Below, piece after piece: positions 17,165 through 22,472 of a stretch of DNA of 58,106 nt. The notes under the pieces were generated by a model. It saw only the letters and a program-made list of their open reading frames with translations. It searched no databases and was not told where the DNA came from. This DNA is from Synergistaceae bacterium. GTDB lineage: Bacteria > Synergistota > Synergistia > Synergistales > Synergistaceae. The stretch is from the NCBI GenBank assembly GCA_031268885.1, contig JAIRWR010000039.1, positions 1 through 58,106 of the forward strand, given 5' to 3'. Made by a program: the position numbers and the translations under genes. The stretch's first letter is position 1. Every line of letters starts with the position of its first letter.

Positions 17165-20100
17165 CTATGTCTCCTCGCTCGCGAGGATCTCTCCAAGGCG
17201 TTCCGTGATGGCATCGTATTCGATGTTGCCTATCTGCTCCCCGAGCCAGCCGATGAGATCCGTCTCGTTTTCGTAGTCGAATTCCTCCAGTTCCACCAGA
17301 AGATCCTCCATCTGAGATGTCTTAAAATGACGGGCAGCGGAGAGCATCTTTTCGAGAATCGCACGATCCGGCGCCGCGCTGCGCGGCTTTTCCTTCCGTC
17401 TTCCGGAACGCTCCGAGGCGCGTTTCAAAAGTTCCTTCAGCTGGGCGATCAGAGCATTCGCCGCGCCTATCAGGGCAATGTGACCGGAGCGCACAGTCTC
17501 CCACTCGCCAGTCCTCGCCGCGTGTTCCAGTCTCTCCGCCTGTTTGCCGATGGCGTCCGCGCAAATGCTATAGCTCGATCCCTTCAGCCCGTGGATGGCT
17601 ATGACGTATGCCTTCATCTCTTCCTGGGCGGGGTTCTCGATCTCGCCGACAGAGAGCTTCTCTATCAGCTCCGGCGTGTGCCGGATATAAGATTGTATGA
17701 TCTTCAGATAGGCTTCTTCGCGGTCATAGCGCGCTATCCCAGCCTTAAAGTCGATTCCGTCCATGAATGCGCCGTCCAGTATCCCCAGAACGCCGTCCCG
17801 CCGCGGCTCGGTCCTCTTCACCGCGCCATTGCCGTCCTGAACTCTTGTGCCCTCCTTCCTGCTCACCCACTGATTCAGGACCACATCCAACCGATGGATG
17901 TCTATGGGCTTAGAGATGAACCCGTCGAAACCGCTCTGAAGAAACATGTCGCTGCTCCCTGAAACCGCGTTGGCTGTAAGGGCCACTATGGGCACTGTGC
18001 GCGCGTACTCCGTCCCGATCTCCTCTCGGATGACGCGTGTAGCCTCCACTCCGTCCATCTCTGGCATCATGTGGTCCATGAATATGACGTCGTACTTCTC
18101 GGTGTCGGAGGCGTTATCGGGGATGGACCTGATGACATCGATTGCCTCCTGGCCGCTCTGGACACAGTCGATAGTCAGTCCGTAGGGTATCATCAGGCCC
18201 CTTGCTACATCCAGGTTCGTCGTGACATCATCGACGACAAGGATTCTCCCCTGCGGCATGTAGGCGCGGATTAGGTTGCGGCGGCCACGTACGCGATTTT
18301 CCATAAAGCGTAATTTTCGCAGGTTGTCCGCCATCTCCCGGCCAATGGGGGTCTTGTCGGCGATCTCAAGGCGAAATGTCACAATAAAAGCGCTGCCGAG
18401 ACCGTACTTGCTCTTCACTCTGATCGTGCCGCCCATCAGTTCGGCGAGGTGCTTCGTGATGGACAGCCCCAGCCCGGTGCCCTCTATATTATGGTCGGGC
18501 CGCGACCTCATCTGACTGTACTCCTCGAAGAGCTTCCCGATCTCCTCTCTTTCGATGCCCACGCCAGTATCCATCACGGCGAAGCGGACGACGGCAGAGT
18601 CGCCATCGCGGCGGACGTGGACACGAAAGGCAACCCTGCCCTCATTTGTATACTTGAAGGCATTGGAGAGCAGGTTGTTCAGGACCTGCTTTACTCGTAA
18701 TTCGTCGCCGCGGAGTTTGGCTGGCATATTTTCGTCTATACCGAGGGTGAAGGAGATGTTTTTTGAACAGATTCTAACGATGTTGAGCTGCACGACGTCG
18801 TTGATGAGGGTTGGGACATCGAAATCTTTTGGTATGATTTCGAAACCGCCCGCCTCTATTTTGGAGATGTCCAGGATGTCGTTGACGATGGCCAGCAGAT
18901 TCGATCCAGAGTTGAGTATCTTTTCGAGGTTACTCTGTGTGCGTTGTGGCAGGTTCTCCCGCAGTTCCACTTCCGAGAGGCCGATGATAGCGTTTAAAGG
19001 CGTCCGCAGTTCGTGGCTTACTGTCGCCAGAAACGCGCTCTTTGCCTTCGTGGCGGCCAACGCGTTCGCGTGCGCCTGCACGAGACTCCGCAGCGTCTCC
19101 CTGCGCGCGATGGCATTTGCCATTAAAAGGCTGCCGGACAGGAGAATATCCTCTTCATCCTGTGTGAATTCGCGCTCATGCAGGCAACTGCCGAAGCTGA
19201 CAAACCCCCAGAATCTCTCCTCCAGAAAGACGGGGATGGAGGTCAAGGACAGGATGCCCGACGAGGCGATCCGCAGGCGATCTTTTTCTGACAGCCTGCT
19301 GCGCAGGATCTCCACGTTTTCGTTGCGGGCGAGCCGCTCTTTCCATCTCGCCAAGCTATCGATGTAGTTACCTTCCGTCTCCAGATCAAGTGGATCGAAT
19401 TTTTTACCGACATCTCCAAGCCAGTTGGCGACCGCTCTGAAATTATGCCTGCCATCCACTTCGTCGTTTTTCCAGATGAAGATGCGATCAATCTCGAAGG
19501 CCGACGCCATCATCCGCATACACTTTTGCAGCGCTTCCTCGAAAGTCTTCTCATCCGCCATCAGGAGCGACACTACGGCTTTGTTGACGATGTACATCAT
19601 CTCGCCCAGGCGCTTGGTCTTTTCAGCCGCGGACCTGGCGGTGGCGAGCGACTCCCTCTCCGCGCGGGTCAGCCTTTTGAAGAAGGCGACGACGATAAAT
19701 ATCATCAGTCCGTAAGCCAGGGCAAGAAGGGTGAAAATGACCTTTGACGACCGGTTCAACGCGATCTCAATATCCGAAAGCAGCTCATTTGACCAGATAT
19801 AGCCTATTACCCTGTCCTGCCTGAAGACGGGCAGCATCGCGTTCATGATGTCCCCGCGGACCATTGTGCCTCTCTCGATCATGGGCGTGTTGGTCATCAT
19901 CACCTGGCGTCCGGGATGATCCTGCGCTATGGATACGCCGACGATGTTTCCGAATTGGGCGGAGGGTCCATATGTGAGCGCGCCGTCAAGATCTATCGAG
20001 TAGTACCCTACTCCCAATCCATCTGAGACCGAAGCCACCTCCTCCGTGGCATCGTTCAGCGCCCTGTTCAAAACAGCGATTTTTTCCTCCCTCGTCGCGG

Positions 20101-20332
20101 ACTCCGCCCCCGCCTCCCTAAGTATCCCATCGTACCCTTCCGCGCCGAGGCGCTGATCCAGCATCCGCGCGAGTGACATCAGGTGCTCGCCCTTCTGCGA
20201 TAAGAACATATCCTGGCTGACATACCTTACCATATACCAGGTGACGATAAACGGCGCGCTCAAGCACAAAAAAAGTATTACGAGAGCTTTTTCGTGAAAC
20301 GGAAGAAACGGCAGCTTTTTCAAAGAGAGCAC
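17165..20332 (-). CDS. Hybrid sensor histidine kinase: TM-extracytoplasmic sensor-TM-GAF-HisKA-HATPase-REC-Hpt
   Basis: 1055 residues. Two membrane helices (about 14-36 and 198-220) enclose a 160-residue extracytoplasmic sensor with Cache-like traits (GYYSIDLDGALTYGPSA), followed by a GAF domain (about 250-420). HisKA has His440, then the ATPase domain, a receiver with Asp753, Hpt with His914 and the same conserved C-terminal tail as its neighbour. It lies upstream of that neighbour on the same strand with an 87-base gap, so the two could share a transcript. Sensor regions are unrelated while the signalling halves are near-identical, implying duplication with sensor replacement. The start, MLSLKKLPFLPFHEK, follows GGAGGAGTGC well. 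Confidence 0.93.
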   Translation of the reverse strand: MLSLKKLPFLPFHEKALVILFLCLSAPFIVTWYMVRYVSQDMFLSQKGEHLMSLARMLDQRLGAEGYDGILREAGAESATREEKIAVLNRALNDATEEVASVSDGLGVGYYSIDLDGALTYGPSAQFGNIVGVSIAQDHPGRQVMMTNTPMIERGTMVRGDIMNAMLPVFRQDRVIGYIWSNELLSDIEIALNRSSKVIFTLLALAYGLMIFIVVAFFKRLTRAERESLATARSAAEKTKRLGEMMYIVNKAVVSLLMADEKTFEEALQKCMRMMASAFEIDRIFIWKNDEVDGRHNFRAVANWLGDVGKKFDPLDLETEGNYIDSLARWKERLARNENVEILRSRLSEKDRLRIASSGILSLTSIPVFLEERFWGFVSFGSCLHEREFTQDEEDILLSGSLLMANAIARRETLRSLVQAHANALAATKAKSAFLATVSHELRTPLNAIIGLSEVELRENLPQRTQSNLEKILNSGSNLLAIVNDILDISKIEAGGFEIIPKDFDVPTLINDVVQLNIVRICSKNISFTLGIDENMPAKLRGDELRVKQVLNNLLSNAFKYTNEGRVAFRVHVRRDGDSAVVRFAVMDTGVGIEREEIGKLFEEYSQMRSRPDHNIEGTGLGLSITKHLAELMGGTIRVKSKYGLGSAFIVTFRLEIADKTPIGREMADNLRKLRFMENRVRGRRNLIRAYMPQGRILVVDDVTTNLDVARGLMIPYGLTIDCVQSGQEAIDVIRSIPDNASDTEKYDVIFMDHMMPEMDGVEATRVIREEIGTEYARTVPIVALTANAVSGSSDMFLQSGFDGFISKPIDIHRLDVVLNQWVSRKEGTRVQDGNGAVKRTEPRRDGVLGILDGAFMDGIDFKAGIARYDREEAYLKIIQSYIRHTPELIEKLSVGEIENPAQEEMKAYVIAIHGLKGSSYSICADAIGKQAERLEHAARTGEWETVRSGHIALIGAANALIAQLKELLKRASERSGRRKEKPRSAAPDRAILEKMLSAARHFKTSQMEDLLVELEEFDYENETDLIGWLGEQIGNIEYDAITERLGEILASEET

Positions 20333-20638
20333 TCCTCCTCCATCCTCTTTAGAAGAGTTGAAGTTATACCCTTCAAGTTATAGGATATGGCCGATTTTTG
20401 TTTCATCGCTAGACTTTATAGTCTTCTCACTTTAGATCGACTCAGATTCAGCGATACCAATATTTTGGGCTATATTGAGGCTTGTTGCCATGAACCCTTG
20501 ATATTGATGGTTCTCATGAGTTAATTCTAAAATCTGGTTTCGCTATTATACTATTAATTTAGTATGTTTAAAAAATCTAAATTTTGACTTTACAACAGCA
20601 TCCTCTCTAAGCAGTTTAATGTTTAAATCGTAACAACA
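20333..20638. other. AT-rich gap upstream of the kinase pair and left of the recombinase element
   Basis: About 300 bases with no gene. The part next to 20332 must hold the promoter of the kinase genes reading left, though I could not choose a convincing -35/-10 pair. The rest is AT-rich, unlike the kinase genes, and ends at the left inverted repeat of the recombinase element. Confidence 0.5.
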
Positions 20639-20707
20639 AAAACCGTTAAATGTTTGCAAAACCAGGGTTTTTTTGACCTCACGGATAATTTTATCATGTT
20701 ACAAAAC
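20639..20707 (+). repeat. Left inverted repeat of the recombinase cassette
   Basis: 69 bases aligning without gaps to the reverse complement of 21460-21528. Best-conserved parts are the outer AAAACCGTT, the core AAACCAGGGTTTT and the inner ATCATGTTACAAAAC. Its crossover-like site (20650-20679) is the least symmetric of the three, with 9 of 14 arm positions matching. Confidence 0.75.
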
Positions 20708-20720
20708 AAAAAACATTTGA

Positions 20721-20750
20721 ATGTCCATAAAACCAGGGTTTTACTGACAT
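20721..20750 (+). repeat. Crossover-like palindromic site L2, next to the recombinase promoter
   Basis: A 30-bp imperfect dyad: arms ATGTCCATAAAACC and GGTTTTACTGACAT (12 of 14 matched) around a central AG at 20735-20736. A 2-bp asymmetric centre in a dyad of this size is what serine recombinases cut. Four bases separate it from the -35 box at 20754, so bound recombinase could also repress its own gene. Confidence 0.7.
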
Positions 20751-20753
20751 GTT

Positions 20754-20782
20754 TTGAGGCATGTTTTTAGGTAAAATATAAA
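20754..20782 (+). promoter_or_regulatory. Sigma-70-like promoter of the recombinase gene
   Basis: TTGAGG at 20754-20759, 17-base spacer, TATAAA at 20777-20782, followed by AGGAG at 20801-20805 and the ATG at 20816. It lies inside the segment between sites L2 and R and would flip with it. Confidence 0.55.
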
Positions 20783-20815
20783 TATAAACTTCGTGATTTT
20801 AGGAGAATTGTTGTA

Positions 20816-21412
20816 ATGAACAACAAAAAACTTGGATATGCCCGCGTCTCAATGTACAACCAAGATTTAGCTCTTCAGTTGGATGCCTTAAAAATTGCCG
20901 GTGTCAAAGATGCCGACATTTACGTTGAGAAGATATCTGGAAGGTTGAGCAAGGCGAAACGGCCGCAGCTCGACGCTTGTCTTAAAAAGCTGAAAGAGGG
21001 GGATATCTTGGTGGTCTGGAAGCTGGATCGCCTTGGGCGTTCGCTTAAAGACCTGCTGAATATCATTCAAGAGCTTGAGGAACGAAAGATCCGCTTCAGT
21101 TCTTTGACCGAGACGATAGATACCTCCTCTCCGACTGGCCGCTTGATATTTCACGTGATTGCCGCATTTGGCGAGTTCGAGCGCAATCTGATAAAAGAAC
21201 GGTCAGTCGCCGGACTTGCCGCCGCCAGGAAGCGCGGCGTTGTCTTCGGTCGCCGCCAAAAACTATCCAGGAAACAGCAAGAAAAGCTCATACAATTTTA
21301 TAAATCTGGCACCCCGATCAAAAAACTTATGGATCAATTCGGCATATCAAAAACATGCCTTTATGATTGTTTGCATACACATAACATCAATTTAAAGAAA
21401 AACGATAAATAG
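20816..21412 (+). CDS. Serine recombinase, resolvase/invertase family (Hin/Pin-like)
   Basis: 198 residues, ATG at 20816 with AGGAG ten bases upstream. The N-terminal catalytic domain (about 1-140) shows the nucleophile Ser12 in YARVSMYNQD, then KLDRLGRSLKDL, the TETIDTSSPTGRL segment and the E-helix FGEFERNLIKERSVAGLAAAR. A short C-terminal DNA-binding domain (about 145-190) has KSGTPIKKLMDQFGIS, a helix-turn-helix. Size and order match DNA invertases and Tn3 resolvases; there is no large-serine-recombinase extension and no N-terminal MerR-like domain as in IS607. Ser12 is followed by Met where Thr is usual. The gene sits between matching inverted sites, so it probably acts on its own cassette. 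No partner transposase is present. Confidence 0.93.
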   Translation: MNNKKLGYARVSMYNQDLALQLDALKIAGVKDADIYVEKISGRLSKAKRPQLDACLKKLKEGDILVVWKLDRLGRSLKDLLNIIQELEERKIRFSSLTETIDTSSPTGRLIFHVIAAFGEFERNLIKERSVAGLAAARKRGVVFGRRQKLSRKQQEKLIQFYKSGTPIKKLMDQFGISKTCLYDCLHTHNINLKKNDK

Positions 21413-21459
21413 ACTTCTTTCTATTATTTTGCTTGATCTTGTTCCGTATGCTTCACTAA

Positions 21460-21528
21460 GTTTTGTAACATGATAATATTGTGCATGATGTCAGTAAAAC
21501 CCTGGTTTAACGGACATGCAACGGTTTT
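21460..21528 (-). repeat. Right inverted repeat of the recombinase cassette
   Basis: Reverse-complement partner of 20639-20707, beginning 47 bases after the recombinase stop codon. It includes crossover-like site R and, on its inner side, the same ATCATGTTACAAAAC block that lies beside the left site. Confidence 0.75.
21488..21517 (-). repeat. Crossover-like palindromic site R
   Basis: A 30-bp imperfect dyad (12 of 14 arm positions matched) with centre CT on the + strand, AG on the minus strand. It differs from site L2 at two positions and is in inverted orientation to it, the geometry that yields inversion rather than deletion. Confidence 0.7.
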
Positions 21529-21644: not shown

Positions 21645-21674
21645 TTGGCGTTGAGTCGAATTTATATGTATAAT
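21645..21674 (+). promoter_or_regulatory. Candidate promoter for the NYN gene
   Basis: TTGGCG at 21645-21650, 18-base spacer, perfect TATAAT at 21669-21674. It would give a leader of roughly 150 bases before the ATG at 21831, carrying the two hairpins described next. The 418-base gap 21413-21830 otherwise holds the right repeat of the recombinase cassette and no gene. Confidence 0.5.
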
Positions 21675-21830: not shown

Positions 21831-22472
21831 ATGTATAAATCGGTAGTATTCGTGGATTTTGAAAACATCCAAAAAATTGACGAAAATATAATTAACTCAA
21901 AGACAAAAGTAATTGTCATGGTTGGGTTAGATCAAAATAATAAAGCGTTTGACTTCGCTAGAAATCTATTTACCGACATCTCTTCAGTAGAATTGATTAA
22001 AGTTAATGGACGCGGGCCGAATGCTTTAGACATCTTTATAGCGTTCTATATCGGCCGCTATTTTGATAGCATAAAGGAATCTGAAATAATTATTTATTCA
22101 AATGATACGGACTATGATCAACTGATAAAACATTTAGATGGTTATGGCATATCTATTAAAAGAATTTGTTTAAACAAATATTCCAATGAGAAGGCAGATG
22201 AGACAAAAGTACCAAAACAGAAAAAGGCGGCGGTTAAACAAAAAAATGGAATAGAGACAGATGACACTCGGACAATCATAGAATTTCTACAAAGACAGAC
22301 AGAGTCACAAAAGAGCAAAAGGCCCAAAAAGTTAACGACGCTTGAAAATTATCTGTACACACATTTTTCTCAAAAAATATCGATTGACAGAGTTAAGATC
22401 GCGATAAGTTATATGGAAGAGAATAAATATATTATAATTATAAATAATAAAATAGATTATAATAATATATAA
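21831..22472 (+). CDS. NYN/PIN-like nuclease-domain protein
   Basis: 213 residues, ATG at 21831 after GGGAGG. The N-terminal 120 residues look like a NYN (PIN-fold) domain: VVFVDFENIQ with Asp9 and Asn12, a middle acidic stretch NALDIFIAFYIGRYFD, and IYSNDTDYDQLIKHLDGYG with clustered aspartates that would bind a metal. A lysine-rich linker follows, then a C-terminal region (about 150-213) with LTTLENYLYTHF and ISYMEENKYI resembling a small winged-helix/HTH. NYN proteins cut or process RNA; the target here is unknown. Strongly AT-rich compared with genes on both sides and adjacent to the recombinase cassette, so probably acquired. Confidence 0.8.
   Translation: MYKSVVFVDFENIQKIDENIINSKTKVIVMVGLDQNNKAFDFARNLFTDISSVELIKVNGRGPNALDIFIAFYIGRYFDSIKESEIIIYSNDTDYDQLIKHLDGYGISIKRICLNKYSNEKADETKVPKQKKAAVKQKNGIETDDTRTIIEFLQRQTESQKSKRPKKLTTLENYLYTHFSQKISIDRVKIAISYMEENKYIIIINNKIDYNNI

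What the first reader, a model, noticed from the sequence alone, without database searches (positions are those of the whole stretch)
20639..21528. Self-inverting serine-recombinase cassette with built-in crossover sites
A lone resolvase/invertase gene is enclosed by two 30-bp palindromic sites (20721-20750 and 21488-21517) that are 28/30 identical and face opposite ways, each with an asymmetric 2-bp centre (AG/CT). A third, degenerate site (20650-20679) lies in direct orientation to the first, 71 bases away. Outer 69-bp inverted repeats share a second block, ATCATGTTACAAAAC. The promoter of the recombinase lies inside the flippable segment. Classical invertases flip a neighbouring promoter or gene; here the enzyme would flip itself with its own promoter, changing which neighbour it transcribes toward. 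I know of no described system with exactly this layout.
Basis: partly seen in the sequence, partly recalled or inferred. Interest (0 to 1): 0.75.

Follow-up and report, generated by a model that had tools for sequence, protein, structure and literature searches.

The report
Self-enclosed Hin-type DNA inversion switch
A small gene for a DNA-flipping enzyme sits between the two sites it cuts, so it can turn itself and an outward promoter-like sequence around; this is the layout of Salmonella's classic Hin switch, found here as a small stand-alone unit present in several copies in a group of little-studied bacteria.

Summary
A 198-aa serine recombinase (20816-21412) is enclosed by two 30-bp inverted palindromes that match 28/30 (shuffles reach at most 21), with a third, degenerate site 71 bp upstream. 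It is a Hin/Gin-type DNA invertase: the best solved relatives are Gin, and the sites have the 12+2+12 AAAACC-NN-GGTTTT plan. The claim that the layout is undescribed is wrong: Hin itself lies inside its invertible segment (PMC5903667). New here: (1) the same cassette, site centres 756-778 bp apart, recurs at three other loci (own genome, a congener, another genus), plus a decayed copy and a copy with one clear site; (2) left and right sites share cassette-specific variants; (3) all five two-sited copies carry an outward extended -10 motif (TGNTAnnAT) 7-11 bp inside the right-hand site, where Hin's target promoter would lie, and none inside the left; (4) the window's extra site looks like a relic of a flipped end with its own outward motif. 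In one relative, flipping would place the motif about 50 bp before a secreted-protein gene. Best reading: a Hin-type promoter-inversion switch in minimal, dispersed form. Inversion itself was not shown (no reads).

The parts
20816..21412 (+). serine recombinase gene (198 aa, Hin/Gin-type DNA invertase)
   Evidence: PF00239 150 bits and HTH_7 35 bits; best solved relatives Gin DNA-invertase 4m6f 190 bits and 3uj3 184 bits, gamma-delta resolvase 113-123 bits
20721..20750 (+). left crossover site (26-bp core 20723-20748, GTCCATAAAACC-AG-GGTTTTACTGAC)
21488..21517 (-). right crossover site, inverted (26-bp core 21490-21515; reverse complement GTCCGTTAAACC-AG-GGTTTTACTGAC)
20736..21502 (.). predicted invertible segment, 767 bp between site centres
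   Evidence: positions of the AG/CT centres; inversion itself inferred
20650..20679 (+). degenerate third site (core 20652-20677), direct to the left site
20680..20707 (-). relic of a right-hand cassette end attached to the third site: ATCATGTTACAAAAC block, as in a flipped left end
   Evidence: 73-nt inverted arm; comparison with the simulated flipped junction
21471..21479 (+). conserved outward extended -10 motif TGATAATAT just inside the right site, reading toward the PIN-domain gene
   Evidence: same motif class in all five cassettes with both sites
20688..20696 (-). outward extended -10 motif TGATAAAAT of the relic end, reading toward the histidine kinase gene
20754..20782 (+). candidate promoter of the recombinase, TTGAGG-17 nt-TATAAA; ribosome-binding site AGGAGA at 20801-20806
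   Evidence: read; not listed by the scan; weak
17165..20332 (-). left neighbour, hybrid histidine kinase (GAF, HisKA, HATPase, RR, Hpt), its start facing the cassette
21834..22472 (+). right neighbour, PIN7-domain protein, its start facing the cassette

Best explanation
This is a minimal, self-enclosed Hin-type DNA-inversion switch. Recombinase dimers bind the left and right 26-30 bp sites, pair them, cut at the asymmetric AG/CT dinucleotide and rejoin, so that the 767-bp segment carrying the recombinase gene flips. The AG centres are opposed, so the left/right pair should give inversion only; the third site, in direct orientation, could pair with the left site to delete 71 bp, or with the right site to flip a slightly larger piece. 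The switched output is most likely a short outward promoter just inside the right site (extended -10 TGATAATAT): in the assembled orientation it faces the PIN7 gene, in the flipped orientation it would face the histidine kinase gene. Shown: enzyme class, site pair, recurrence of the whole cassette at several loci, conserved outward motif. Inferred: that inversion happens, that the motif is a promoter, and that the neighbours are switched by it.
For: Site pair 28/30 against at most 21 in shuffles. Gin-like enzyme. The same architecture (gene between inverted AG/CT sites, centres 756-778 bp apart) at G000:C114 (L031), G003:C155 (L033) and G076:C183 (L142), and in a decayed copy at G003:C82 (L166, centres 438 bp apart). 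None of 80 named relatives at 43-52% identity is enclosed like this within 300/900 bp (best 20/26, null also up to 20). Left and right sites match best within their own cassette: the best of 120 pairings. Outward TGNTAnnAT 7-11 bp inside the right site in 5 of 5 and none inside the left. The relic at 20635-20707 resembles a flipped left end. In L033, flipping places TGCTATTAT, a short leader and AGGAGGAG in front of the ATG of a gene with a signal peptide.
Against: No reads or second strain show the flipped orientation. Both window neighbours have promoter-like sites of their own outside the segment (20572-20545 minus; 21645-21674 plus), and the PIN7 start lies about 350 bp from the outward motif, so control of these neighbours is uncertain. 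The motif was noticed after inspection, and three of the five copies are close homologues. -35 elements are poor. One relative (L032) has only the left site clear.
Confidence: 0.72

Rival explanations
1. Self-flipping cassette without a dedicated output: the inversion mainly changes the direction of the recombinase's own transcript or serves only autoregulation, as a near-selfish element.
For: The gene fills most of the segment; candidate recombinase promoter inside it; window neighbours have promoter-like sites of their own; the cassette sits beside unrelated genes at each locus.
Against: Conserved outward extended -10 at the right end in five cassettes; in L033 a gene starts about 26 bp beyond the site, so its promoter must lie in or next to the segment.
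Confidence: 0.2
2. A mobile element whose inverted ends are the sites; the recombinase or another enzyme moves the cassette between loci, and inversion is secondary.
For: Copies at non-equivalent places in three genomes; recombinase identity to a different genus (81%) exceeds that to the congener's copies (64-65%), although polynucleotide phosphorylase is 80% and 82%; a decayed copy exists; hutI in G003 has no cassette after it, unlike in G000.
Against: Similarity between copies stops at the outer half-sites; no target duplications seen by eye; inverted sites do not give excision for this enzyme class; no bare sites elsewhere in the genome. Paralogy and loss could explain the identities.
Confidence: 0.15
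3. A resolvase with a res-like site: the two upstream sites act as sub-sites for resolution rather than inversion.
For: Two direct sites 71 bp apart upstream of the gene.
Against: Enzyme is closer to Gin than to gamma-delta/Tn3 resolvase by about 60-80 bits; the second upstream site is absent from the other cassettes, whereas the inverted downstream site is kept.
Confidence: 0.04
4. Locked or dead remnant that no longer flips.
For: A degenerate third site; one relative with a decayed right site and one with a broken gene.
Against: In the window the reading frame is intact, the residues invariant in the family are kept, and the two sites match 28/30.
Confidence: 0.1

Closest known systems
Salmonella Hin / H segment (hixL-hin-fljBA promoter-hixR)
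   Same: Recombinase encoded within the invertible segment (PMC5903667); two 26-bp inverted sites around about 1 kb (PMC3798978); proposed outward promoter at the end opposite the recombinase start.
   Different: No flagellin/repressor operon beside it; extra degenerate third site; several dispersed copies per genome; dependence on Fis and an enhancer unknown; different outer arms (GTC...GAC).
Phage Gin / Cin / Pin DNA invertases
   Same: Closest solved enzymes (DNA-invertase 4m6f, 3uj3); AAACC-NN-GGTTT core plan (core comparison from general knowledge).
   Different: Those enzymes sit beside a segment that switches tail-fibre genes (general knowledge); here the enzyme is inside the segment.
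Bacteroides Mpi master invertase
   Same: Same broad enzyme class (NCBIfam Mpi model hit at 59 bits, far below its cut-off of 272).
   Different: Mpi acts on at least thirteen remote regions (PMC5903667); here no site outside the cassettes was found.

Membership tests
Hin/Gin-type DNA invertases | small serine recombinase, resolvase catalytic domain plus C-terminal HTH, closer to invertases than to resolvases | tested here: met
Hin/Gin-type DNA invertases | two inverted ~26-bp sites, imperfect palindromes with a 2-bp asymmetric centre | tested here: met
Hin/Gin-type DNA invertases | inversion between the sites | not testable with these tools
   no reads or conspecific strain; only a relic resembling a flipped end
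Hin/Gin-type DNA invertases | Fis-bound recombinational enhancer | not tested
   no enhancer or Fis search was made
Hin-type promoter switch (recombinase inside segment) | recombinase gene inside the invertible segment | tested here: met
Hin-type promoter switch (recombinase inside segment) | outward promoter near one site that drives a neighbouring gene in one orientation | tested here: inconclusive
   outward extended -10 motif in five copies; promoter activity and target untested
Tn3-type resolvase with res site | direct-repeat crossover site with accessory sub-sites, no inverted partner | tested here: not met
   matched inverted downstream site in the window and four relatives; enzyme closer to Gin
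insertion sequence / transposon | terminal inverted repeats with target-site duplication | tested here: not met
   no flanking duplication by eye at window, L033, L142 or L166; similarity ends at the sites

The most novel reading that the evidence does not exclude
A portable promoter switch: a ~770-bp unit of invertase, its two sites and an outward promoter that spreads between loci and genera and places whatever gene it lands beside under random on/off control (secreted protein, methyltransferase, corrinoid operon, histidine kinase/PIN protein).
Probability: 0.3. Interest if true: 0.55.

Novelty: new member of a known kind. Interest (0 to 1): 0.38.

Why it matters
It shows that Salmonella's Hin layout, usually taught as a special flagellar switch, exists as a compact stand-alone unit in unrelated bacteria, two or more per genome, next to different genes. 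If the outward motif is a promoter, these cassettes would be ready-made on/off switches and a simple way to predict phase-variable genes in uncultured species. They also offer an invertase family with clear site-enzyme pairing for studying how sites and enzymes evolve together.

Tried and rejected
Search for bare sites elsewhere: within 3 mismatches none in the own genome; in nine related genomes only the cassettes plus two poor one-strand matches (G001:C283, G070:C153); none in viral contigs. Empty-site test for the window: neither neighbour (HK, PIN7) has a homologue in the congeners, so no cassette-free orthologous locus was found; for the C114 copy the hutI gene in G003 lacks the cassette after it, but the downstream gene differs. 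The L142 methyltransferase has no relative in five other genomes. The permease search for L033 gave only paralogues. A CTERM-type sorting signal for the L033 secreted protein, suspected by eye: no NCBIfam match, so not claimed. The organism was not identified. Transposon and res-site readings were rejected for the reasons given among the rivals.

Full report
Observation. The two 30-bp sites, their opposite orientation, the AG/CT centres, the direct third site 71 bp away and the longer inverted arms are all in the sequence. The 28/30 match is far beyond chance: 200 dinucleotide shuffles reach at most 21. The enclosed gene is a 198-aa serine recombinase with both resolvase-family domains.

What the enzyme is. 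A profile of four recombinases (the window's, its paralogue and two from a congener) finds Gin-type DNA-invertase as the best solved relative (190 and 184 bits), well above gamma-delta resolvase (113-123 bits). The sites follow the 12+2+12 plan with AAAACC-NN-GGTTTT in the middle. This places enzyme and sites in the Hin/Gin invertase group. Relatives at 43-52% identity are very common in bacteria, plasmids and phages.

The cassette recurs. In the same genome, contig C114 holds a paralogue (84% identical) enclosed by the same kind of sites, the left one degenerate. A congener, G003, has one intact copy with both sites (C155, L033), one copy with only the left site clear (C211, L032) and a broken copy (C82, L166) with matching inverted sites around a recombinase with an internal deletion. 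A different genus, G076, has another intact one (L142). In the four copies with an unbroken gene and two sites, the site centres are 756-778 bp apart. None of 80 named, more distant relatives is enclosed in this way, nor are the more distant recombinases of the same taxonomic family that were checked (L034, L035, L143-L145). The close layout is thus a property of this small subfamily.

Sites go with their own cassette. Of the 120 possible left-right pairings among five cassettes, the true pairing gives the highest match (117 against a mean of 98.8). Variants such as GTTAAG...CTTAAC in L166, CAAACC...GGTTTG in L033 and AAAATC in L142 are shared by both ends. This fits sites kept in step with one enzyme, or copied together as a unit.

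Output. Just inside the right-hand site every one of these five cassettes has an outward-reading extended -10 motif TGNTAnnAT, ending 7-11 bp before the site (TGATAATAT in three, TGCTATTAT, TGCTATGAT); nothing of the kind stands inside the left site. Shuffling gives 1-2% per cassette. The motif was noticed after the fact and three copies are closely related, so the joint figure should not be read as a probability. In Hin the target promoter lies on the invertible segment (PMC3535392), at the equivalent end (general knowledge). In L033 a gene with an evident signal peptide begins about 26 bp beyond the left site. In the assembled orientation the outward motif points away from it; flipping would put TGCTATTAT, a short leader and AGGAGGAG in front of its ATG. 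In L031 and L142 the assembled orientation also points away from the one gene that starts beside the cassette, a TylF-like methyltransferase and a corrinoid-protein operon respectively. In the window both neighbours start toward the cassette, so either orientation faces a gene.

The third site. Together with the 28 bp after it, the third site resembles the right-hand cassette end placed on the left, i.e. what the left junction looks like after a flip. It carries its own outward motif, TGATAAAAT at 20696-20688 on the minus strand, toward the histidine kinase. The simplest reading is a relic of an earlier cassette end in the flipped orientation. This is indirect evidence that both orientations have existed; a duplication of the end by another route is not excluded.

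Compared with what is known. A published survey states that recombinases are occasionally located within the invertible segment, naming Hin (PMC5903667). Hin inverts about 1 kb between two 26-bp sites and thereby a promoter (PMC3798978). The window cassette works, by anatomy, like Hin. What differs is the compact stand-alone form, several copies per genome next to unrelated genes, and the relic site. Papers describing such dispersed self-enclosed cassettes were not found in the held library, which is a limited search.

Spread. The window recombinase is 81% identical to the copy in another genus but only 64-65% to the copies in its congener G003, while polynucleotide phosphorylase is 80% and 82%. 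Old paralogues or horizontal transfer would both explain this.

Limits. No reads, no second strain of the same species, no test of promoter activity, and no search for Fis or an enhancer. The organism was not identified.

Noticed in passing
L166:282-745 (G003:C82): Decayed recombinase cassette with an internal deletion and matching inverted sites of a distinct variant (GTTAAGAAAACC-AG-GATTTTCTTAAC), upstream of the histidine-degradation genes.
   Followed up: yes
L033:5626-6711: Secreted protein with a signal peptide and a C-terminal GGCEAG-hydrophobic-KRKR tail, resembling a sorting signal by eye; no NCBIfam or Pfam match.
   Followed up: partly
window:12872-17077 and 17165-20332: Two adjacent hybrid histidine kinases with very similar kinase/receiver/Hpt halves but different sensor halves, suggesting tandem duplication.
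   Followed up: no
G000:C105:7035-7934, G000:C75:16052-17026, G000:C120:4016-4960: Three ABC-transporter permease copies in the genome each contain a single in-frame TGA; pseudogenes or assembly errors.
   Followed up: no
window:22627-24408: Von Willebrand/YfbK-type protein with a second copy (71%) in the same genome on contig C71 and an 85% relative in G001.
   Followed up: no
L032:1593-1618: Recombinase copy with only the left site clear; a possible decayed right site near 2380-2405.
   Followed up: partly
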